This document shows, piece by piece, positions 2,213 to 34,070 of a stretch of 64,000 bases of DNA. The stretch is from positions 41,096-105,095 of IMG/VR virus record IMGVR_UViG_3300032896_000001; one strand, written 5' to 3'. The position numbers and the translations under genes are program-made. Below the pieces are notes generated by a model. It saw nothing but the letters and a program-made list of their open reading frames with translations. It ran no database searches and was not told the DNA's origin. Source of the stretch: a virus. Position 1 is the first letter of the stretch. Each line of letters starts with the position of its first letter.

Positions 2213-3106
2213 CTAGGGCAGGTCGGGCTCCTGGCTGTCGTCCCACGGGCCGAATTCCTCCGGCGGGAACATGATCTCCGCGACGTCGGCCGGGGTCATC
2301 CCGAGGTCGCGGGCGACCTTCTTGACGGGCGACGGGTGACCTTCGGGGACCTCGTTCCAGGCGTCCCAGACGTCCTTGAACATCTGCTTCGTGCGAATGA
2401 AGGCGGCCTCTTCCGCGTCCTCGGCCGTTGTGGCGTCGTCGGGGACCGCGAACCGGGCGGCCTCGCGCTCCACGTCCGGGACGTCCTCGGCGGACTCGAG
2501 GACGAGCTCGGCGGCGCGCGTGAGCCGGTTGGCGATCAGGAGCGCCTCCTCGGGCGACAGCATCGCGTACGCCTGCTGGCGGTCGTCCCCGTCGATTCCA
2601 AGCCCGACCATGCCGGGGGTCATCCCGAGGTCGCGGGCGACCTTCTTGACGGGCGACGGGTGACCTTCGGGGACCTCGTTCCAGGCGTCCCAGACGTCCT
2701 TGAACATCTGCTTCGTGCGAATGAAGGCGGCCTCTTCCGCGTCCTCGGCCGTTGTGGCGTCGTCGGGGACCGCGAACCGGGCGGCCTCGCGCTCCACGTC
2801 CGGGACGTCCTCGGCGGACTCGAGGACGAGCTCGGCGGCGCGCGTGAGCCGGTTGGCGATCAGGAGCGCCTCCTCGGGCGACAGCATCGCGTACGCCTGC
2901 TGGCGGTCGTCCCCGTCGATTCCAAGCCCGACCATGCCGGGGTCGTGGCCGGGCGCGCCGCAGTCGTCGCATTCGAAGGCGCCCTCGGGGGCGAAGACGT
3001 GCTCGACGGCGATGCGGTCTCCGCCGCAGTCCCCGAAGACGACTCCGATCGTGCGGGTGCGCATCGGGATGCCCTTGCTGGCGGCTTCGGGTTCGCTCTC
3101 GCTCAC
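2213..3106 (-). CDS. Hypothetical acidic protein with a perfect internal duplication
   Basis: The 297-aa product has no family I recognise. After an N-terminal segment with a CDDCG knuckle (about residues 47-51), a 108-residue block is present twice with identical DNA. Each copy ends in a helix-turn-helix-like stretch, VARDLGMTP, and the second continues into ADVAEIMFPPE. The GTG start overlaps the stop of the upstream RHH-HNH gene by 4 bp, so the two form a leftward pair facing the virion operon. The duplication may be real and recent or an assembly artefact. Confidence 0.7.
   Translation of the reverse strand: MSESEPEAASKGIPMRTRTIGVVFGDCGGDRIAVEHVFAPEGAFECDDCGAPGHDPGMVGLGIDGDDRQQAYAMLSPEEALLIANRLTRAAELVLESAEDVPDVEREAARFAVPDDATTAEDAEEAAFIRTKQMFKDVWDAWNEVPEGHPSPVKKVARDLGMTPGMVGLGIDGDDRQQAYAMLSPEEALLIANRLTRAAELVLESAEDVPDVEREAARFAVPDDATTAEDAEEAAFIRTKQMFKDVWDAWNEVPEGHPSPVKKVARDLGMTPADVAEIMFPPEEFGPWDDSQEPDLP
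2292..2939. repeat. Perfect 324-bp tandem duplication (two copies)
   Basis: Copy 1 is 2292-2615 and copy 2 is 2616-2939. No mismatch was found when the two were read side by side. The unit is exactly 108 codons, so the reading frame of the host gene is preserved and the protein simply carries the block twice. Confidence 0.95.
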
Positions 3107-10569: not shown

Positions 10570-13500
10570 GTGGCAGGCGCCGAGAGCTTTACCGTGCTTG
10601 CGATCCTCGAGGCCCGTGATGCGGCCAGCGAGATCTTCGCCAAGATCGACGAGTCTCTCGACAAGTTCGGCGAGACCGCGGCGAAGGCGGCGGAGACCGC
10701 CAGGGGCGCGGGCGACAGCATCGACGAGTCGCTGCTCCACACCGCCTCCGGCGCCGACGCCCTGGACCTCGCGACCGCCCGGGTGGTCGCGACCCAGGAG
10801 AAGGCGACGCGGACGGCGGAGGCGCAGGCCGATGCCGAGCGGGCGCTGCTGGAGGCGTACCGGGCCTCGCAAGGGGCGGCGGACGACGATGTCGCCTCGC
10901 AGTACCGGCTCCTGGAGGCCCAGCAGCTGCTGACCGCCAAGTCGAAGGAGAACGCGGCGGCGCAGAAGGACCTGAGCGCCGCGCAGAAACTCCAGGCCGA
11001 CACGGCCGAGGCGGCGGCCGCGAAGAACGACGAGGCGGCCGCCAGCACGACCGCCGTGAAGGACGCCAGCGAGGCCGGCGGGATCAGCCTCGGCACGATG
11101 GGGAAGGTCGCGGGCATCACCGCCCTGGGCCTCGGGGTCGCGGCGGCGGTCATGGTCAAGGCCGCCGGGAACTTCCAGTCCAGCACCACCCACCTGGTCA
11201 CTGACGCGGGCGAGTCCGCGTCGAAGCTCGCCATGGTGCAGGCCGGGATCCTGAACGTGTCGACGGCGACCGGCACCGCGGCCTCCGACGTCACGACCGC
11301 GATGTACCACATCGAGTCCGGCGGGATGCACGCCCAGGAGGGGCTGAACGTCCTGAAGGTCGCCGCGGAGGGCGCGAAGGTCGGCAACGCGGACCTCGGC
11401 ACCGTGTCCCAGACGCTCGTCGGCACCCTGAACGCCTACTACGGCAGCACGATGAACGCGGGCAACGCGACGCAGCGGTCCACGTCGATGATGAACGAGC
11501 TCATCGCGATCGTCGGGTCCGGCGACATGACGATGCAGCAGCTCGCCTCCTCCATCTCCTCTGTCGCGCCGATCGCGTCGAAGGCCGGCATCAGCCTCGC
11601 CCAGGTCGGCGGCGCGATCGCCACGATGACCAGCCAGAACATGTCCGCCAACCAGGCGACGCAGGATCTCGCGCACACCATCAGCGCCCTGCAGAACCCG
11701 TCGTCGATCCAGACGGCGGAGATGGCTCAGCTCGGCCTGAGCTCGACGAAGGTCAGCCAGAACCTCGGCAAGGAAGGGCTCACCGGGACCATCGCCACGC
11801 TGACCGGCGCGATCACATCGCACATGGGACCGGCCGGCACCGTCCTCATGAACGCCTTCAACCAGAGCAAGACCGCCTCGGCGGACGCGAACACGATGCT
11901 GTCGAAGCTGCCCGCCTCGATCCAGTCGGTCGCCAAGGGGTACCTCGACGGGACGGTCAGCTACAACACCTGGTACGCGGCGACGAAGAGCCTGCCGCTG
12001 GTGGCGCGGACGATGGCGGACCAGTTCGCGTCGACCGCCGGGAAGGCCCACGGGTTCAACAGCATCCTGGCCGCCGGGGGCCCCGCGGCGCAGACCTACA
12101 GCGCGGCGCTGTCGAAGATGATGGGCGGCCAGATGGGCCTCAACACGGCCCTGATGCTGTCCGGGAAGAACCAGGGGACTTTCGACAAGAACGCCGCGAC
12201 CGCCGCGAGGGCCGCCGCCGCGGGGGGGTCCGCCGTCCAGAACTGGGCGGCGATCCAGGGGACGTTCAACCAGAAGGTCGACGTCGCGAAGACCGGCATC
12301 GAGAACACCGGCATCGCGATCGGGACCGCCCTGCTGCCCGCCGTGACGTCGGTCCTGTCGGCGATCACCCGGGTCATCATCCCGATCGCGGAGTGGACCG
12401 CCAAGCACCGGACCCTCACCGAGGTCATCTTCGTCTCGGTGACCGCGATCGCCGCCGTGATCGCGGTCATCGCGATAGCGAAGAAGGCGTTCGACGCCGT
12501 GTCCGGCGCGGTGAAGACCGTGCAGGCCACCCTCAAGGCGCTCGGGATCATCTCCAAGGAGACCGCCGACACGCAGGCCGCCTCGGCCGAGTCCGCCGCG
12601 GCGGCGCAGGAGTCGTCGTCGGCGGAGGCCTCGGCGGCGATGACGGCGGACGCCGAGGAGGTCGCGGCCGCCAACGACGAGGCGGCCGCAGAGTCGTCGG
12701 CGTCCTGGCTGACGGCCGCGACCGAGCAGATCGCCACGGCCGCCGGGTGGGTGGCCGAGCAGGCGGTCAAGGTCGCCTCGGTCGTCGCGTCCAACGTGGC
12801 GGCCGCCGCGACGACCGCGGGGGCGTGGGTCGCTGCGGGGGCGCAGCAGGTCGCCGGGGCGGCCGTGTGGGTGGCGCAGACCGTCGCGAAGGTCGCCGTC
12901 ATCGTCGCGAGCAACGTGGCCGGGGCGGCCGTCACCCTGGCGGCGTGGGTCGCGGCGAACGCCGCGATGCTGCTGGGGATCGCCCTGATCGTCGCCGCCG
13001 TCGTCGCGGCGGTCCTGTTGATCGTCAAGTACTGGAAGCAGATCTCGGACGCCGCCAAGGAGGCGTTCGATTTCGTGATCCAGATCGCCGAGACCGTATT
13101 CGACTGGGTGAAGGCGCACTGGCCGCTGCTGCTCGCGATCCTGCTCGGGCCGTTCGCCGTCGCGGCGCTGGAGATCGCCGCCCACTACAAGCAGATCCTC
13201 AAGGCCGTGTCCGACGCGATCGACTGGGTGAAGTCCAACTGGCCGCGCCTGCTGGAAATTCTTACCGAGCCGATCGATTCTGCTGTCACGTGGATAGAAC
13301 AGAGATTCGATCAGATACGGTCCGGGGCGGCGTCCCTCGTCGGCGACCTGGTCCATTTCTTCACCACGCTTCCCTCTCGCATCATCGGCGCCCTCGGCAA
13401 CGTCGGCTCGATGCTGTTCGGCGCCGGCGAGAAGATCATCCAGGGGCTCATCAACGGCATCGAGAACATGGTCGGCTCGGTGGGGTCCGCGATCGGGTCG

Positions 13501-13890
13501 ATCGCCTCGACCATCAAGTCGTTCCTGCCGTTCTCCCCGGCCAAGCGCGGCCCGCTGTCCGGGGCGGGCGACCCGTCGAACTCCGGCAAGTCGATCGCGA
13601 AGAAGCTCGCGCAGGGGATCACCGCCGGGAAGGGCGAGGTCGCCGCGGCCGCGCACGCGCTCGCCGGGTCGGTGACGACCGGGACGTCCGGGGGCATGGG
13701 CGGGCTCGCGCTCAGCGCCGCCGGCGGCGCGGGCGCGGCGGCCGCGGGCGCGGGGGGCGTGAACCTCACCATCGACCTGCGCGGGGCGTCGATCATGAGC
13801 GACAGCGACGTCAACAACCTGGTGCGCAAGCTCGGGCCGGCCGTTGTGAAGGCTCTGAACCAGGCCGGGATCAAGGTGAGGATGCCTTGA
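10570..13890 (+). CDS. Tail tape measure protein
   Basis: 1106 aa from GTG 10570, the longest gene here. Residues 1-170 are coiled-coil rich. About 190-480 contain a TP901-type core (LVTDAGESASKLAMVQAGIL, MYHIESGGMHAQEGLNVLK). Ala/Val-rich hydrophobic and amphipathic segments occupy about 575-860, and a Gly-rich stretch precedes the C-terminus. The protein sets tail length; at roughly 0.15 nm per residue the tail would be about 165 nm, within siphovirus range. It follows the chaperone pair as expected. Confidence 0.92.
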   Translation: MAGAESFTVLAILEARDAASEIFAKIDESLDKFGETAAKAAETARGAGDSIDESLLHTASGADALDLATARVVATQEKATRTAEAQADAERALLEAYRASQGAADDDVASQYRLLEAQQLLTAKSKENAAAQKDLSAAQKLQADTAEAAAAKNDEAAASTTAVKDASEAGGISLGTMGKVAGITALGLGVAAAVMVKAAGNFQSSTTHLVTDAGESASKLAMVQAGILNVSTATGTAASDVTTAMYHIESGGMHAQEGLNVLKVAAEGAKVGNADLGTVSQTLVGTLNAYYGSTMNAGNATQRSTSMMNELIAIVGSGDMTMQQLASSISSVAPIASKAGISLAQVGGAIATMTSQNMSANQATQDLAHTISALQNPSSIQTAEMAQLGLSSTKVSQNLGKEGLTGTIATLTGAITSHMGPAGTVLMNAFNQSKTASADANTMLSKLPASIQSVAKGYLDGTVSYNTWYAATKSLPLVARTMADQFASTAGKAHGFNSILAAGGPAAQTYSAALSKMMGGQMGLNTALMLSGKNQGTFDKNAATAARAAAAGGSAVQNWAAIQGTFNQKVDVAKTGIENTGIAIGTALLPAVTSVLSAITRVIIPIAEWTAKHRTLTEVIFVSVTAIAAVIAVIAIAKKAFDAVSGAVKTVQATLKALGIISKETADTQAASAESAAAAQESSSAEASAAMTADAEEVAAANDEAAAESSASWLTAATEQIATAAGWVAEQAVKVASVVASNVAAAATTAGAWVAAGAQQVAGAAVWVAQTVAKVAVIVASNVAGAAVTLAAWVAANAAMLLGIALIVAAVVAAVLLIVKYWKQISDAAKEAFDFVIQIAETVFDWVKAHWPLLLAILLGPFAVAALEIAAHYKQILKAVSDAIDWVKSNWPRLLEILTEPIDSAVTWIEQRFDQIRSGAASLVGDLVHFFTTLPSRIIGALGNVGSMLFGAGEKIIQGLINGIENMVGSVGSAIGSIASTIKSFLPFSPAKRGPLSGAGDPSNSGKSIAKKLAQGITAGKGEVAAAAHALAGSVTTGTSGGMGGLALSAAGGAGAAAAGAGGVNLTIDLRGASIMSDSDVNNLVRKLGPAVVKALNQAGIKVRMP

Positions 13891-25997: not shown

Positions 25998-26191
25998 CGC
26001 CTCACGCGGCCCTGGCGAGGGGTTCCCGGGCCGTCGGGGGCGCGTTCCGCCGGGACCGCGCCCGTGCGCCGCCATGAGCGCCGGAACCGGCGGCACTCGC
26101 ACAGCGGGCAGTCGGCCCCCGCCCGGTGGTGGCGGTGGGCATCGCGGTCATGACCGCAGCGGCAGGGGCGCGAGCGCAGCCGGGAACGCAT
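25994..26191 (-). CDS. Small zinc-ribbon protein (CxCGH ... DCxxCxC family)
   Basis: 65 aa from ATG 26191. The centre PCRCGHDRDAHRHHRAGADC, then PLCECRRF, matches the pattern C-x-C-GH ... AH..H.....DC..C.C..F seen again at 38886-39098. The rest is basic. The antisense location between tailspike and esterase genes suggests a small DNA- or RNA-binding accessory protein; function unknown. Confidence 0.6.
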   Translation of the reverse strand: MRSRLRSRPCRCGHDRDAHRHHRAGADCPLCECRRFRRSWRRTGAVPAERAPDGPGTPRQGRVRR

Positions 26192-26246
26192 GCCGCTAAA
26201 TCTACGGGGCCCGCGGGCCTCTCCCTGCTCCCGGAGGTGGCCGCGC

Positions 26247-27371
26247 GTGCCGACGACGATCGCGAGCATCCTCGCCGGCCGGAACGCGGGCCGGGTCGAC
26301 ATCCCCATCCTCGGCGACTCGGTGACCGAGGGCTACGGGGCCAGCGCGTTCACGACCCGGTACGTCGAGCAGCTGAACACGCTGGCCAGGCAGGCGTACC
26401 CGACGACCGCGGGCGGAAGCTCGGGCGGCCTCGGCCTCATCCCCCTGGCGCCGGTGATCTCGATGCTGTTCACGTGGCCGGTCGCGGGGGACACCGCCGG
26501 CGGGGCGATCGACGTCGGGCCGATCCGGTACTCGGTGTGGGAGTCGGCGTCGGAGGGGTCGGCGGCCCGGACCTGGACCGCCCCGGCGGGCACCACGTCG
26601 GTGAGGCTCATGTACTTCGACTCGGCCGCCGCCGGCACGTTCAGCTACCAGGTCGGCGCCGGGGCGGCGACGGACGTCTCCAACAGCGGCGCCGGGGTCG
26701 ACGGGGCGCTCACCGCGCCGATCCCCATCGGCGGCGGGGAAGTCCTCACCATCGCGTGGGTGAGCGGGAACGTGTTCTTGCACGGCATCGTCCACTACGC
26801 GGGCGACGAGGGCAGCGGGATCACGTTCCACGCCTGCGGGCACTCGGGGTCGACTGCGAGCACCGCGTCGTCCGGGTGGATGCAGACGGGCAGCGGCTTC
26901 GACTGGCGCCCGGCGATCGCGAGCCTGATCCCCGCGGCGGGCGCGTTCGGGGTGTTCCTGGGCCTGAACGACGCGAGCGCGTCAGTCGGGGACGAGACCG
27001 CCGCGCAGTTCCAGGCCGACCTGGAGAACATGTACGCCTACCTGCGGGGCAACGCGGCCCTCGCGAGCCTGCCGCTCCTGGCGGTGGTCCCCTACGACGC
27101 CGGGATCACCTACGCCGACGCGGGCGGCTACCCCGCTTACGTCGCGGCGGTCGAGGCGGCGGCGGCGCACGACGGCAACGCGCAGGTCGTCAACCTCGGG
27201 GCGACGATGCCGTCGTACGCCGCCGACCCGGCCTACTACTACAACTCGGTCCACCCCAACGACTCGGGGCACCTGCTGGTCGCGCAGATCATCGAGGGCG
27301 CGCTCGCGCCCCCCGCCCCGCCGTCCCCGGGCGCGTCGGCCGTCCCCGCGTTCCTGACCATGAGCACCTAG
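26247..27371 (+). CDS. SGNH/GDSL esterase in the tail-adhesin cluster
   Basis: 374 aa from GTG 26247, with GGAGG 9 nt upstream. Block I is ILGDSVTEGYGA near residue 23, a GLND block III appears in the latter half, and HPNDSGH (block V) lies near residue 340, so the Ser/Asp/His set is present. The middle contains an inserted beta-rich domain. Virion-associated members typically remove acyl groups from surface polysaccharide; this is inferred from the neighbours. Confidence 0.78.
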   Translation: MPTTIASILAGRNAGRVDIPILGDSVTEGYGASAFTTRYVEQLNTLARQAYPTTAGGSSGGLGLIPLAPVISMLFTWPVAGDTAGGAIDVGPIRYSVWESASEGSAARTWTAPAGTTSVRLMYFDSAAAGTFSYQVGAGAATDVSNSGAGVDGALTAPIPIGGGEVLTIAWVSGNVFLHGIVHYAGDEGSGITFHACGHSGSTASTASSGWMQTGSGFDWRPAIASLIPAAGAFGVFLGLNDASASVGDETAAQFQADLENMYAYLRGNAALASLPLLAVVPYDAGITYADAGGYPAYVAAVEAAAAHDGNAQVVNLGATMPSYAADPAYYYNSVHPNDSGHLLVAQIIEGALAPPAPPSPGASAVPAFLTMST

Positions 27372-27379
27372 GAGGCGCC

Positions 27380-27673
27380 GTGATCATCACCGGCCAGGCG
27401 GCCGCGACCACCGCGGCGGCGGAACTGTGCGCCGTCCCCGAGGGGGCGTGCCTGATCACCTTCACGTCCGACCCGGCGAGCGCCGGCACCGCGTACATCA
27501 TCGGCCTCAGCCCCTCCGGGGGCGGCCAGTCGTCGTCGTCGCAGGGCCTGCCGCTGGCCGCGGGCGGCACCGTCACCACCGCGACGTACGGCACCTCGAA
27601 GGGCACGACGCTGCAGGTCGCCTGCGCGACGGGAACCGCCGTCGTCGGCTACCTGATCAGCACATACAACTGA
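27380..27673 (+). CDS. Small beta-rich tail protein
   Basis: 97 aa from GTG 27380 with GGAGG 5 nt upstream. Residues 1-97 form Ala/Thr/Ser/Gly strands (ELCAVPEGACLITF; AYIIGLSPSGGG). It probably belongs to the adhesin cluster; role unknown. Confidence 0.62.
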   Translation: MIITGQAAATTAAAELCAVPEGACLITFTSDPASAGTAYIIGLSPSGGGQSSSSQGLPLAAGGTVTTATYGTSKGTTLQVACATGTAVVGYLISTYN

Positions 27674-27720
27674 CCCGGGCCGGACGGCGCCGCCCGGGAC
27701 GACAGGAAAGGGGGCCGTTC

Positions 27721-27969
27721 GTGGACGGCGAGACGCGGGACCAATTCCGGGAGCGGATGCGCTCCATCGGGTTCATGGCCGGAGGCCGGACCCGGGACAA
27801 GGTGGCGACGATCACCCGCCCGGAGGACGACCCCGGGGCGGACGCCGGCCAGCGGGCGAAGCAGGTCACCGACGAGCTCGGCACCGTCATCACCGAGTCC
27901 GACAACCGGCAGGACGTCAACATCCACCCGGTGACGCACGTCGCCGAGATCAGCATGCTAGGAGACTGA
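27721..27969 (+). CDS. Small conserved-looking protein
   Basis: 82 aa from GTG 27721. It starts DGETRDQFRERMRSIGFM and ends ESDNRQDVNIHPVTHVAEIS. It is charged, unlike the Thr/Ser-rich neighbours, and may be an assembly or chaperone factor for a fibre; no family is recognised. Confidence 0.62.
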   Translation: MDGETRDQFRERMRSIGFMAGGRTRDKVATITRPEDDPGADAGQRAKQVTDELGTVITESDNRQDVNIHPVTHVAEISMLGD

Positions 27970-27975
27970 TAGCAG

Positions 27976-28515
27976 ATGGCCTGGTCCAGCTCCGGCGAGT
28001 CCGGATTCTTCATCGCCACCATGATCGCCGGGCTGACAGCGGCGACCCAGACCGGCACTCCCACCGCGATCAACATCAACGAGAGCTCGGAGCAGAACCT
28101 GAGCCTCGTCTCCGGGTCGGCGGTCAGCTACACCAACGCGCCGCTCCAGTACGGCGCCGCCGCCCCCGGGTGGACGAACGCCGACGAGGTCACAGGCACC
28201 GGCTGGAGCACCGGCGGCGTCCTGCTCTCAACTGCCACCTCCACCAACGGCGACGTTGTGCCCACCACGACCATCACCGGCTCCGGGCCCTATGTTCTGA
28301 CGTACAGCTGGACGCACGCGCTGAGCGTGGCGAGCACGACGCTGACAGGCATCTACGGGTGCCTGATCTACTTCCCGAACATCACCGCAGGGGTCGCGTC
28401 GAAGCCGGAGATGCTCGCGCTGTACTTCGGCAACACCGCCTACAACACGGTCAACGGCACGTTCGGCATCACCCCGTCCGGGTCGGGCCTCGCCGCCCTC
28501 ACCCTGACCGCGTAG
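27976..28515 (+). CDS. Beta-rich structural protein
   Basis: 179 aa from ATG 27976. Repeated Thr/Ser/Gly/Ala strands run through segments such as NADEVTGTGWSTGG and TYSWTHALSVASTT to a closing LYFGNTAYNTVNG. Likely a fibre or tail-tip subunit by position and composition. Confidence 0.66.
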   Translation: MAWSSSGESGFFIATMIAGLTAATQTGTPTAININESSEQNLSLVSGSAVSYTNAPLQYGAAAPGWTNADEVTGTGWSTGGVLLSTATSTNGDVVPTTTITGSGPYVLTYSWTHALSVASTTLTGIYGCLIYFPNITAGVASKPEMLALYFGNTAYNTVNGTFGITPSGSGLAALTLTA

Positions 28516-28525
28516 GGGGCGGGTC

Positions 28526-29155
28526 ATGGCATCGCAGAACTGGGTGGCGCTCCTCAACCCGGGCATCACGCCGACCGGGCCGGGCGTCACGTTCACGGAG
28601 TCCGCCACCACCGCGGTCCTGTCCCCGCAGCTATCGGGGTCTGCGGCCGATTACGCGGTCGTGAACGCGGCCGGGCAGCCGTATGGCTGGCAGGTCGGCA
28701 CCCTGCTGCGGGTGACGGCCCGCGGGTGGATCACGACCAGCACGACCACGGGCACGCTGACGATCTTCCTGCGCGCGAACAAGGGCAACGCCGGGTCGAC
28801 GTTCGTCACCCTGGCCACGCCGAACGGGATCACGACCGGCGCCACCGCCGTCACCGGCATCCAGTTCAAGCTGGAGGCGATGATCCGGTGCACGGCGGTC
28901 GCCAGCTCCGGGAGCACGCTGAGCACGCAGGGCGAATTGAACCTGTTCAACAACCTCGCGGCGGTGGCCGCCAACCCGATCGCGCTGTCAGCGTCACCGC
29001 CGCCCGGCTTCGCGCTGCCGATGCCGAACATCTCGGGCGAGACGGCGGCGGCCGTCGACACGACCCAGGCGCAGGGCATCGAGCTCGCCGCCACCGGCAC
29101 GGCGGCGTCGGGGACGATCGCGTGCACGCAGTGGCTCGTCGAGCTGCTCGACTAG
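28526..29155 (+). CDS. Beta-rich tail fibre-like protein
   Basis: 209 aa from ATG 28526 (GGGGGCGGG upstream). The composition is that of a virion beta protein, with an LLRVTARGWITT segment and a C-terminal GTIACTQWLVELL strand. It forms part of the adhesin array; specific role unknown. Confidence 0.66.
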   Translation: MASQNWVALLNPGITPTGPGVTFTESATTAVLSPQLSGSAADYAVVNAAGQPYGWQVGTLLRVTARGWITTSTTTGTLTIFLRANKGNAGSTFVTLATPNGITTGATAVTGIQFKLEAMIRCTAVASSGSTLSTQGELNLFNNLAAVAANPIALSASPPPGFALPMPNISGETAAAVDTTQAQGIELAATGTAASGTIACTQWLVELLD

Positions 29156-29183: not shown

Positions 29184-29369
29184 ATGGGTCGCGAGGTTCC
29201 CGCGGTGACGGCCGTCATCAGGATGCAGCCGAGCCCCGTGGAGATCTACGCGTGCGCCGCCCACGTCATGGCCACCATCCGCGAGCTCGGCGGGAAAGAC
29301 CTCGGCCTGCGCCCGGCGGACCCCGGCATCCACGGGTGCAAGGGCTGCTGGGATGACTGGCCGGCCTGA
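29184..29369 (+). CDS. Small protein preceding the repeat adhesin
   Basis: 61 aa from ATG 29184. The helix EIYACAAHVMATIREL, then GCKGCWDD (CxxC) suggests a small metal-binding domain. Its TGATG stop/start overlaps the ATG of the 848-aa repeat protein at 29369, so the pair is translationally coupled. Role unknown. Confidence 0.62.
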   Translation: MGREVPAVTAVIRMQPSPVEIYACAAHVMATIRELGGKDLGLRPADPGIHGCKGCWDDWPA

Positions 29370-31915
29370 TGGCGTCGGTCGTCCAGTCGGCGATCATCAA
29401 CCAGTCCGGCAGCAGCTGGTCGGGGTCGTTCGGCTCTAACGTCACCGCCGGCTCCTCGGTCGTGCTGCTCGCGACCGCCGCGAACAGCACGACCGCCATG
29501 TCGAGCTCCGCGCCGACGTTCAACGGGGCGTCGGTCGCCGGGTCATCCCAGCTGTGGTCGGAGAACTTCGGCGCGAGCAGCATCGCCTACTCCACCGGCT
29601 GGCTGATGCCCAACGTCGCCGGCGGGTCGGCCGCCGTCGGGCTGACCGTGACCAACGGCACCAACTTCGGCAGCGGCGCGACCGGCACGTGGGGCATCGA
29701 GGTGGCCGCGCTCGGCGCGAGCCCGACCACGGTGGCCGCCGCGGCGGCGGGCGGCTCCAGCGCGGCGTTCAGCTCGGGGGCCACCGGCAGCGCCACGGGC
29801 ACGGGCATCGCCGTCGCCTGCTGCGTGGGATTCGGGCAGACCGTCGCGCAGTCGGGCGGCGGCTGGACGAACCTCACCCAGATGTCCAGTGATTTCGGCA
29901 TCTGCGGGTACCAGCTCGTCAGCAGCGGCACCGTCACCTACGCCGGCACGCTGAGCACGGGCAACTGGGCTGTCGGGGCGACGATCATCCTGGCGACGCC
30001 GGCCGCCGCCTCCCAGGCCGTCGCGTACCCGGTGGCGCTCCCGCCGGGCCGCAGCTCGCCGATGGCCTTCCCGTGGACGCCGGCGCCCTTGCCGGTGCAG
30101 CCGCCGTACGGGGTCGGCGCCACCGCCACCACCGCGGTCCTCGCCGGCTCGGCGTCCTTCCCCTCGCCGTCGGTCGAGGCCGACGAGAACCTGACCACCA
30201 CCGTCCTCGCCTGCTCCGCCTCGTTCCCGGCGCCGATGGTGAGCGCGGGCGAGACCGCCACGCCGTCCGTCCTGGCCGGGTCCGCGAGCTTCCCGGCCGC
30301 CACGGTGACTGCGGGCGCCACGATCACGCCCGCGACGCTGTCGGCGTCGGTCGCGTTCCCCGCCGCCGCGGTGACGACCGGCGAGACCGTCACGACCGTC
30401 GTGCTGGCGGCCTCCGCCGGCTTCCCGGCGCCGTCGCTGCGCGCCGACGAGATCCTCACGACGTCCGTGCTCGCCGGCGCGATCGCGCTGCCGCCCCCGG
30501 CGGTCAGCGCCGGCGAGACCGTCACCACGACACTGCTGCCGGGGTCCGCCTCCTTCGCCGCGCCGGCGATCAGCGCCGGCGAGACCGTCACCGCGGCGGT
30601 TCTGGCCGGATCGGCGTCCTTCCCCGCCCCGGGGGTCGGCGCGGGCTCCGGGGCCTCGCCGTCCGCGCTTCCCTGCGCCGTGTCGTTCCCCGCCCCGACG
30701 GTCACCGCGGGCGGCGGAGCCGCCGTCACGCCCGCGGCCCTGGACGGCGCCGCCTCGTTCGCCTCGCCGGGCATCCGCGCCGACGCGAACCTGACCGCCG
30801 CGACCCTGACGTGCGGCGTCGCCTTTCCCGCCGCCGGGCTCCGCGCGGACGTGAACCTGACCAGCGTCCTGCTGGCAGGGTCCGCCGCCTTCCCGGCCGT
30901 CACGATCGGCGCCGGCGAGACAGTCACCCCTTCCCCCATGGACGGCTCGGCAGCGTTCCCGGGGCCTGCGGTCGGCGCGGGCAGCGTCGCCGCCCCCGCC
31001 GCCCTGGCGGCCAGCGCCGCCTTCCCCGCGGCCACGGTGGCAGCAGGGTCGGGCGCCACGGCATCAGCGCTGGCCTGTTCGGCCTCGTTCCCGGCGGCCG
31101 CCGTGTCCGCAGGCTCGGGCGCCGCACCCGCCGCGCTCGCAGGGGCAGCCGCGTTCCCCGCGGGGAGCTTCCGCGCGGACGCGAACCTCACGGCCGCCCT
31201 GCTGCAATGCGCGGCCGCGTTCCCCGTCCCGTCGATCTCCGCCGGGGGCAGCGCCACCGTCGCCCCGGCCGTCCTGGCCGCCGGCTCCGCGTTCCCCGCC
31301 CCGGCGCTCTCCTCGGGCGAGACCGCCGCCGCCGGCCCGCTGACCGCAAGCGCATCATTCCCCGCGCCCGCGCCGGCCGCCGGGTCCGGCGTCGCCCCGG
31401 GCGCGCTGAGCGGCACCGCCGGATTCCCCGCCCCGCAAATCAGCGCAGGCGAGACCGTCACCCCGGCCGCACTCGCCGGCGCCGTGTCGTTCCCCGCCCC
31501 GACTGTCTCAACCGGGTCGGGGGAGACCATCATCCCGGCGCCCCTGGCCGGCTCCGTCTCGTTCCCCGCCGCCGTCACGGGCGCGGGCGCGACGGTCACC
31601 GCCGGCGTCCTGCCCGGCGCCGCGGCGTTCCCTGCGGCCGGGCCGACCGCCGGGACGGTCATCACCCCGGTGGCGCTCAGCGGGACCGCGGGCTTCCCGG
31701 CGACCGCCGTCACCACCGGGTCCGCCGTCATCCCCGCCGCGATGACCGGCTCGGCCGCGTTCCCCCCGCCGGATGTCACCGGCGGGGCGGGCGTCGGGAT
31801 CGTCTTCACGGCACTCGCGTCCCGGCAGCTCTGGTCCGCCGGCCCCGCCCGGCAGCTCTGGTCATCGTCGGCCGCCCGGCAGCTGTGGTCCGCCTCCGCA
31901 TCCCGGAACACCTGA
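29369..31915 (+). CDS. 848-aa tail adhesin with about 25 copies of a 22-residue repeat
   Basis: Residues 1-247 form a beta domain. Residues about 248-805 are tandem 22-23-residue units of the form VLAGSASFPAPxVxAGETVT, and residues 819-848 carry three short RQLWS repeats. The ATG lies in the TGATG of the upstream gene. A solenoid or extended shaft reaching a receptor-binding tip is likely; repeat counts in such proteins may vary and tune reach. The C-terminal 30 residues may be an assembly or exchange module. Confidence 0.8.
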   Translation: MASVVQSAIINQSGSSWSGSFGSNVTAGSSVVLLATAANSTTAMSSSAPTFNGASVAGSSQLWSENFGASSIAYSTGWLMPNVAGGSAAVGLTVTNGTNFGSGATGTWGIEVAALGASPTTVAAAAAGGSSAAFSSGATGSATGTGIAVACCVGFGQTVAQSGGGWTNLTQMSSDFGICGYQLVSSGTVTYAGTLSTGNWAVGATIILATPAAASQAVAYPVALPPGRSSPMAFPWTPAPLPVQPPYGVGATATTAVLAGSASFPSPSVEADENLTTTVLACSASFPAPMVSAGETATPSVLAGSASFPAATVTAGATITPATLSASVAFPAAAVTTGETVTTVVLAASAGFPAPSLRADEILTTSVLAGAIALPPPAVSAGETVTTTLLPGSASFAAPAISAGETVTAAVLAGSASFPAPGVGAGSGASPSALPCAVSFPAPTVTAGGGAAVTPAALDGAASFASPGIRADANLTAATLTCGVAFPAAGLRADVNLTSVLLAGSAAFPAVTIGAGETVTPSPMDGSAAFPGPAVGAGSVAAPAALAASAAFPAATVAAGSGATASALACSASFPAAAVSAGSGAAPAALAGAAAFPAGSFRADANLTAALLQCAAAFPVPSISAGGSATVAPAVLAAGSAFPAPALSSGETAAAGPLTASASFPAPAPAAGSGVAPGALSGTAGFPAPQISAGETVTPAALAGAVSFPAPTVSTGSGETIIPAPLAGSVSFPAAVTGAGATVTAGVLPGAAAFPAAGPTAGTVITPVALSGTAGFPATAVTTGSAVIPAAMTGSAAFPPPDVTGGAGVGIVFTALASRQLWSAGPARQLWSSSAARQLWSASASRNT
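30115..31797. repeat. 66-bp tandem codon repeat array (about 25 units)
   Basis: Degenerate 66-bp units encode the 22-residue repeat FPAPxVxAGETVTPxxLxxSAS (rotated). Units differ at many third positions and at some residues (for example FPAAAVTTGETVTT, FASPGIRADANLTA). The drift shows that the array is old and under protein-level selection; it is not a CRISPR or simple-sequence repeat. Confidence 0.85.
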
Positions 31916-31924
31916 GGAGGCGGC

Positions 31925-32263
31925 GTGCAGACGCTAACCCAGTCGGTGCTGAGCACCCAGTACGTGCAGACGCTGATCGCCGTCACCAGCGTCAGCGGCG
32001 ACTACGACCCGACCACCGACACGATCGCGTGGGCGTTCACCAGCGCGAACGCCTACCCGGCCGTCTCCCCGTCCGCCTGGACCGACGGCGAGTGGATCAC
32101 CTACCCCGGAGACCAGTGGTGGGCTCAGATCCTCGTCGGGCCGGCCGGGGCCGTCACCCTCGCCACCGGGACATGGCAGGCATGGGTAAAGATCAGCGAT
32201 TCACCCGAGGTCCCGGTATTGCAGCCGTTCCTGCTCCAGATCGTGTTATGGCGGAATTCGTGA
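31925..32263 (+). CDS. Small tail protein
   Basis: 112 aa from GTG 31925 (GAGGAGG upstream). Segments such as VLSTQYVQTLIAVTS and TWQAWVKISDSPEVPV are typical of small tail-assembly or fibre-attachment proteins. It is the last gene of the adhesin cluster before the mobile HNH gene. Confidence 0.66.
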   Translation: MQTLTQSVLSTQYVQTLIAVTSVSGDYDPTTDTIAWAFTSANAYPAVSPSAWTDGEWITYPGDQWWAQILVGPAGAVTLATGTWQAWVKISDSPEVPVLQPFLLQIVLWRNS

Positions 32264-33176: not shown

Positions 33177-34070
33177 TTGACCACTCCCGCCCGCGTCCCC
33201 GGCAAGCGGGGCAGGCTCCCCGCCAAGCGCCTGGCTATGGGCTACCTGCACTCGTACCTCAAGGCCCCGCTTCCCGCCCCGGCCTACCCGGTCGACGTCC
33301 GCGCGGGCATCCCGGACGGAAATTGGCAGATGCTCGGCAACGGACCCGACCCGACGTGCACGGTCGCGCCCGAGGGCGTCGGCGACTGCACGTTCGCCGG
33401 CCGCCAGCACTACCGCATGGCGAAGGCCGCCCACTACGGCGAGACGGAGACCTGGGAGACCAGCAACGCGCTCGTCGAGGAATACCTCGCCTACGACGAC
33501 GGCCAGGACGGGGGCGCAGTAATCGCGGACCTTCTCCTGTCCTGGTACAAGGCGGGCACGATCCTTGCGTTCGCCCCGGTCGACCACACCGACCCGGCGG
33601 CGGTCGACTCGGCGATGCAGGAGTTCAAGGGCGTCTACGCCGGCGTCAACCTCACCGACGACGCCGACCAGCTGTTCAGCGACGGCCAGCCGTGGACGAC
33701 CGCGAACGGCGAGCAGCCCGACCCGAACGACGGGCACTGCATCGTCAAGGTCTACGCCGACGGCAAGGACTCCGACGGGTGGGTTACGTGGGGCGCCTAC
33801 CAGCAGTCCACCAGCGGGTGGACGAAGGCGTGCCTCACCGAGGCGTGGGCGATCATCACCAGCGAGGATGAGGCGGCCAAGGTCGACATGACCTCCCTCC
33901 TCGCCGACATCGAGGCACTCGGCGGAACCGAGCCCGTGACGCCGACTCCGGCCCCCTCGCCCGCGCCTGTTCCCGGGCCTGACCACAAGAGCCTCCTTGC
34001 CGAGCTCGCAGCCATCGTCCGGGAGGACGCCGCCAAAGCGGTCGCCTGGCTCCACTCCAAGGGCCTCTAA
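33177..34070 (+). CDS. Cysteine-peptidase-like lysin candidate
   Basis: 297 aa from TTG 33177 with AGGAGG 8 nt upstream. A GDCTF Cys (residue 71) and NDGHCIVKV His (187) with VTWGAYQQ are consistent with a papain/C39-type fold. A Pro-rich linker (residues 253-268) and a C-terminal helical domain follow. Endopeptidase lysin is a reasonable proposal, but the residues could also belong to a tail-associated peptidase. Confidence 0.6.
   Translation: MTTPARVPGKRGRLPAKRLAMGYLHSYLKAPLPAPAYPVDVRAGIPDGNWQMLGNGPDPTCTVAPEGVGDCTFAGRQHYRMAKAAHYGETETWETSNALVEEYLAYDDGQDGGAVIADLLLSWYKAGTILAFAPVDHTDPAAVDSAMQEFKGVYAGVNLTDDADQLFSDGQPWTTANGEQPDPNDGHCIVKVYADGKDSDGWVTWGAYQQSTSGWTKACLTEAWAIITSEDEAAKVDMTSLLADIEALGGTEPVTPTPAPSPAPVPGPDHKSLLAELAAIVREDAAKAVAWLHSKGL

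What the first reader, a model, noticed from the sequence alone, without database searches (positions are those of the whole stretch)
30115..31905. 848-aa tail adhesin made of about 25 copies of a 22-residue repeat plus three RQLWS repeats
Beyond residue 247 the protein is almost pure 22-residue units (FPAPxVxAGETVT core), then three short RQLWS units at the very end. Divergent codons show protein-level selection, not replication slippage. An extensible shaft with an exchangeable tip would fit a host-range device, and length could vary between related phages.
Basis: seen in the sequence. Interest (0 to 1): 0.72.

Follow-up and report, generated by a model that had tools for sequence, protein, structure and literature searches.

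The report
Phage fibre with 25-repeat shaft
A soil phage of a probably actinobacterial host encodes an 848-residue fibre protein built from 25 copies of a 22-residue unit, and its last residues (a tryptophan every nine positions) together with the small gene that follows turn out to be a conserved, undescribed pair found in dozens of phages and prophages whose shafts are otherwise unrelated.

Summary
ORF 29369-31915 (+) has 25 tandem units (21 of 24 spacings are 22 aa, 3 are 24), then three RQLWS motifs nine residues apart. The array is old and stable. Synonymous codons are randomised between units, and a sister phage has the same 25 units in register with no indel. A distant relative has 35 units, a related N-domain and an unrelated C-terminus.

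The RQLWS end is not a one-off tip. The next gene (31925-32263, "g36", about 105 aa, no confident Pfam, PHROG or NCBIfam match) has homologues in dozens of viral contigs and Actinomycetes-class genomes. It is nearly always immediately preceded by a long ORF ending in tryptophans about nine residues apart: 38 of 42 distinct tails against 36 of 161 control ORFs. The shafts in those ORFs have different repeats (periods 18, 20, 22, 23, 36-38). Several carry lectin (LamG) domains at the N-terminal side.

Best reading: a modular virion fibre with a beta-rich N-terminal domain (probably the binding end), a strand-repeat shaft, and a C-terminal W-nonapeptide dock for g36. Virion location, oligomeric state and fold are not shown; AlphaFold2 models were low confidence.

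The parts
29369..31915 (+). 848-aa repeat fibre protein
   Evidence: full-length relative L004 at 87% identity, same length without indels
29369..29998 (+). N-terminal domain (about residues 1-210), predicted all-beta
   Evidence: 71-95% identical in L005 and L004; aligned at 25% with a domain of the G003 protein (pairwise E 0.13, so weak); AlphaFold2 pLDDT 52, pTM 0.55
29999..30127 (+). proline-rich linker
   Evidence: sequence reading
30128..31795 (+). array of 25 units of 22 (three of 24) residues; core TPAxLAGSASFPAPxVxAGETV
31823..31906 (+). three W-nonapeptides (RQLWS...; W every 9 residues)
   Evidence: same arrangement upstream of g36 homologues elsewhere
31925..32263 (+). g36, 112-aa partner gene starting 10 bp after the fibre stop codon
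   Evidence: no confident Pfam, PHROG or NCBIfam match
28526..29155 (+). 209-aa protein upstream, 97.6% identical in G001, function unknown
27976..28515 (+). 179-aa protein; similar proteins precede the fibre in L004, L005 and G003
   Evidence: alignment only, no significance test
27673..27969 (+). conserved ~90-aa protein (C-terminal part of the called ORF); a look-alike (ITES-NRQDVNIHP) in the same place in G003
   Evidence: by eye
26190..27371 (+). GDSL-esterase-type protein (phrog_15881, tail)
10570..13890 (+). tape measure protein, 71% identical in G001

Best explanation
The ORF encodes a modular virion fibre. Shown: a conserved N-terminal domain; a 25-unit, 22-residue array; a C-terminal run of three W-nonapeptides; a downstream gene, g36, whose homologues almost always follow an ORF with such a W tail although the shaft repeats differ completely. 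Inferred: the array forms an elongated, strand-rich shaft, probably as a homo-oligomer (a trimeric beta-fibre or a beta-solenoid). The W-nonapeptides are a docking or folding site for the g36 protein, which fixes the fibre to the virion (adaptor) or completes its assembly. The N-terminal domain is the outward, sugar-binding-type end, because relatives carry LamG lectin or Gly-rich domains on that side. Host contact and virion position (tail, neck or head) are not shown.
For: Periodicity and unit conservation. Old, in-register array: 25/25 units match their positional counterpart in L004 best. Tape measure, GDSL tail-type and minor-structural context. W tail directly upstream of g36 in 47 of 51 viral loci; 38 of 42 distinct tails against 36 of 161 control ORFs, Fisher p 3e-16, relatedness not corrected; 22 of 26 against 60 of 212 in the first set. 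W-W spacing is 9 in 76 of 131 cases. Gap between fibre stop and g36 is a few bases to tens of bases in most loci. Shaft periods vary (18, 20, 22, 23, 36-38). Laminin_G_3 toward the N-terminus in L137, L138, L151 and (below the Pfam cut-off) L175; Gly_rich_2, with a phrog_863 tail match, in L137. Related phages with different shafts but a conserved g36 and a W tail.
Against: No structure: AlphaFold2 of six units reached pLDDT 48, pTM 0.35, and of the N-domain pLDDT 52, pTM 0.55; Foldseek gave no match at E below 0.09. The window's N-domain matches no known binding domain. G003 keeps the N-domain type and repeats without a W tail or g36, so the dock is not obligatory. Four of 42 distinct tails, including contigs with truncated upstream sequence, do not fit. 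Physical interaction of g36 with the W tail is inferred only from gene linkage.
Confidence: 0.55

Rival explanations
1. Classical polarity: the N-domain attaches to the virion, the shaft projects outward, and the W tail with g36 forms the distal tip. g36 then acts as a tail-fibre assembly chaperone or a tip cap, like Tfa/gp38-type proteins encoded right after the fibre gene.
For: g36 lies immediately downstream of the fibre gene, the usual place of Tfa-type factors (general knowledge). The N-domain is well conserved between close relatives.
Against: No Tfa family match. Classical tips vary and classical anchors are conserved, the reverse of what is seen. Lectin domains of the relatives lie toward the N-terminus.
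Confidence: 0.25
2. A head or neck fibre rather than a tail fibre: it decorates the capsid or connector, for loose attachment to surfaces.
For: In relatives the gene pair lies next to terminase, portal or MuF-like genes; in G003 the repeat gene lies between portal and head protease. Neck fibres encoded away from other structural genes exist (PMC10966104).
Against: In the window it lies after the tape measure and tail-type genes, and in G002 soon after the putative tape measure gene. Gene position alone does not fix virion position.
Confidence: 0.3
3. The 22-residue array is a largely unstructured Ala/Pro/Thr-rich spacer of little functional importance.
For: Low-confidence AlphaFold2 model; relaxed dN/dS of 0.53.
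Against: L5, F11, P12 and G/D19 are near-invariant over 25 units; unit count and register kept between window and L004 with no indel; unit-length changes fall in the same loop.
Confidence: 0.15
4. Artefact: a GC-rich reading frame with accidental periodicity.
For: Long antisense and overlapping frames are also open.
Against: Lowest dN/dS of the six frames and most changes at codon position 3; homologous protein with the same repeat in a distant phage; C-terminal motif recurring in many other phages.
Confidence: 0.02

Closest known systems
G003 protein (IMGVR_UViG_3300047508_000198, 1374 aa)
   Same: Same 22-residue repeat (35 units), weakly similar N-domain, similar small genes upstream
   Different: Extra N-terminal domain, unrelated C-terminus, no W tail, no g36; sits between portal and head protease
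LamG/Gly-rich fibre proteins followed by a g36 homologue (L137, L138, L151, L175 and others)
   Same: N-terminal domain(s), tandem ~18-23-aa repeats, W-nonapeptide tail, g36 directly downstream
   Different: Different N-domains and repeat sequences; most viral-contig relatives have period 18
Siphophage adhesion devices with BppU-type adaptors (TP901-1, T5 p132)
   Same: A small beta-fold adaptor links receptor-binding or fibre proteins to the tail (PMC7291167)
   Different: No sequence match of g36 to any solved adaptor; fold not tested
Tail-fibre assembly proteins (Tfa, T4 gp38)
   Same: Small gene directly after a fibre gene
   Different: No profile match
Beta-repeat viral fibre shafts (triple beta-spiral, beta-solenoid)
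   Same: Short repeats with conserved hydrophobics and Gly/Pro turns, variable loop length
   Different: No sequence or convincing fold match

Membership tests
Phage structural/fibre protein | Encoded in the structural module with tail genes | tested here: met
   Tape measure at 10570 and a GDSL tail-type protein at 26190 on the same strand
Phage structural/fibre protein | Present in virions | not testable with these tools
   needs proteomics or EM
W-nonapeptide fibre + g36 pair (defined here) | Two or more W about nine residues apart at the C-terminus | tested here: met
   RQLWS x3, period 9
W-nonapeptide fibre + g36 pair (defined here) | g36 homologue directly downstream | tested here: met
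   31925-32263; window g36 hmm E 2e-36
Laminin_G_3 lectin fibre | LamG domain N-terminal to the repeats | tested here: not met
   no Pfam match in the window ORF; met in L137, L138 and L151
Tail-fibre assembly (Tfa) for g36 | profile match to a tail-fibre assembly family | tested here: not met
Tail-fibre assembly (Tfa) for g36 | gene directly downstream of the fibre gene | tested here: met
BppU-type adaptor for g36 | BppU-N fold | tested here: inconclusive
Triple beta-spiral / beta-solenoid shaft | characteristic fold | tested here: inconclusive
   pLDDT 48, weak solenoid-like Foldseek hits with E of 0.25 or more; trimer not predictable here

The most novel reading that the evidence does not exclude
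The W-nonapeptides are donor strands: each completes an incomplete Ig-like g36 subunit, so the number of nonapeptides sets how many g36 copies sit on the fibre end. This would be a pilus-like strand-complementation socket used by phages to plug in any shaft. The only hints are the period-9 strand-sized motif, a weak two-domain match of the g36 profile to the Saf pilus subunit SafD/SafA (E 0.0064; each domain alone not significant), and the precedent of a BppA Ig-type domain completed by a BppU extension (PMC7291167).
Probability: 0.12. Interest if true: 0.75.

Novelty: new variant of a known kind. Interest (0 to 1): 0.5.

Why it matters
Repeat-shaft fibres are a known kind. The recurrent W-nonapeptide tail plus g36 gene is not in Pfam, PHROGs or NCBIfam at a useful score, and none of the four g36 queries tried matched any of the 50,697 phage records besides the window's own, which also gave none, yet it recurs in tens of metagenomic phages and actinobacterial prophages. 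If it is a universal socket, it explains how these phages exchange whole shafts and binding domains, and it gives a sequence handle for finding fibres in unannotated actinobacterial phages.

Tried and rejected
tblastn of the whole ORF, the N-domain, the G003 protein and the L137 shaft against phage records gave no match; low-complexity filtering may hide repeats. A relaxed repeat pattern in 84,980 genomes gave 87 stretches; the 80 listed each have a single match, and a profile made from the repeat found no convincing array among the fetched loci, so I treat them as chance. The first RxxW pattern scan was mostly out-of-frame noise but brought in L118. A three-protein alignment of the N-domain found no further relatives. 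The first overlapping self-alignment of repeats fell into trivial register and was replaced by disjoint blocks. Foldseek with low-confidence models is not used as evidence. Recent slippage is rejected by codon randomisation and positional orthology. The idea that the RQLWS end is a unique host-range tip is rejected because it recurs with unrelated shafts.

Full report
What is there. The window is bases 41096-105095 of a 105,095-base virus record. ORF 29369-31915 (+) codes for 848 aa. Lag-22 autocorrelation of its repeat region is 0.42 against a shuffled maximum of 0.20, and the DNA peak is at 66 bp. A dynamic-programming parse gives 25 units, 21 of 24 spacings being 22 aa and three 24 aa; the length changes fall in the loop between the 'VxAG' and 'VTPAxL' stretches. 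Position 5 is L (23/25), 11 is F (24/25), 12 is P (23/25), 19 is G or D (25/25). A reduced-alphabet autocorrelation also peaks at 11, as if each unit held two strand-sized halves. Three RQLWS motifs follow, nine residues apart.

Is it selected and stable? L004 (G001, IMGVR_UViG_3300032898_000006) encodes a protein 87% identical over all 848 residues, the same length without a single indel. Each of the 25 units is closest to its positional counterpart there (25/25), and residues shared between units use the same codon no more often than codon usage predicts (0.533 against 0.515). There is thus no recent duplication or slippage. dN/dS is 0.53 in the array, 0.30 in the N-domain, and 0.06 in the 209-aa neighbour; the annotated frame has the lowest ratio of all six. 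Selection on the array is real but moderate.

Relatives with the same repeat. A DNA pattern for two successive units found only G001 and one more contig, G003. G003 encodes 1374 aa with 35 units, a longer N-terminal part whose second domain aligns to the window N-domain at 25% identity (pairwise E 0.13, so weak), and an unrelated C-terminus. Small genes upstream look alike in both. L005 (G002) keeps the N-domain at about 71% identity, but the ~90 residues left on its contig hold a different, short repeat. So array length and composition do change between more distant relatives.

The C-terminus and g36. The L118/L135 phage has a proline-rich repeat ORF ending RVPWTAGEP-RLTWTAGAG-RPSWTAEPG, followed by a 59%-identical homologue of the window gene 31925-32263, here called g36; its portal is 65.5% identical over 624 aa to that of the window's phage. 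So two related phages share portal, g36 and W tail but not the shaft. I then collected g36 homologues by g36 similarity alone: five viral contigs, five of 394 genomes from an Actinomycetes class, fourteen of 293 from one order, two further genomes from the phylum sample, and 53 viral-contig loci (three are contigs already seen). In the first set 22 of 26 upstream ORFs have at least two W in the last 50 residues, against 60 of 212 other ORFs. In the 53-locus set it is 47 of 51, or 38 of 42 after collapsing similar tails, against 36 of 161 controls (p 3e-16, not corrected for shared ancestry). W-W distance is 9 in 76 of 131 cases. The fibre stop codon lies within a few to tens of bases of g36 in most loci. 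In these fibres the shaft repeat is 18, 20, 22, 23 or 36-38 residues long with unrelated sequence, and several carry Laminin_G_3 or Gly_rich_2 domains toward the N-terminus.

Mechanism. Shown: the modular order N-domain, repeat array, W tail, g36, and the exchange of shafts. Inferred: the W tail docks or folds with g36. The commonest logic of fibres is that the recurrent end sits on the virion and the varied end faces the host; that points to the C-terminus as the anchor, with the N-terminal, often lectin-type domain outward. Precedents for small beta adaptors between tail and binding proteins are BppU and T5 p132 (PMC7291167). The alternative, a Tfa-like chaperone or tip cap with classical polarity, is open; no Tfa profile matches g36. 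Virion position is uncertain: tail-type context in the window, but terminase, portal or MuF neighbours in others, which would fit a neck or head fibre as in phage A-1(L) (PMC10966104).

Structure. AlphaFold2 of six units with thirteen disjoint blocks as alignment gave periodic strands but pLDDT 48 and pTM 0.35; the N-domain gave pLDDT 52, pTM 0.55. Foldseek found nothing significant. Profiles of the repeat and N-domain find no solved relative; g36 has only a weak match to Saf pilus subunits. No fold claim is made.

Limits. Gene calls are mechanical (GC3-based). In one search the L149 tail was picked in a wrong frame by the script; the true tail was put in by hand. Controls are ORFs of the same loci. 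Statistics ignore relatedness. No paper describing the W-nonapeptide/g36 pair was found in five searches of open-access papers; that is not proof of absence.

Noticed in passing
window 2292-2942: Exact tandem duplication of 324 bp (100% identical, 2.0 copies) inside an ORF called on the minus strand; must be very recent or an assembly effect.
   Followed up: no
L179-L184, downstream of g36: Several prophages carry a similar ~235-aa protein (MADDLLVIIPTRGRP...) that looks like a glycosyltransferase, and some an NAD-epimerase-like gene, right after g36; possible sugar modification of the fibre. Read by eye, not scanned.
   Followed up: no
L179 and L181: Two successive fibre + g36 pairs in tandem, each fibre with its own W tail.
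   Followed up: partly
L150 8767-9150: The gene just before the fibre matches PF23140 (Gp80, podophage GP4 fibre I); look-alikes precede the fibre in L179, L180 and L185.
   Followed up: partly
G003 (L017 1-6036, minus strand): Very large (>2000 aa) fused protein with head maturation protease, ParB C-terminal-like and other domains; the 1638-aa neighbour has an Arr-ms (rifampin ADP-ribosyltransferase) domain.
   Followed up: partly
window 33213-34067: Protein after the fibre cassette with weak match to phrog_19005, only 34% identical to its counterpart in G001; looks like a papain/C39-type fold by eye.
   Followed up: no
window 29938-31986 (minus): Long antisense open frame (682 aa) opposite the repeat array, also open in L004; probably a GC-rich coding mirror effect.
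   Followed up: partly
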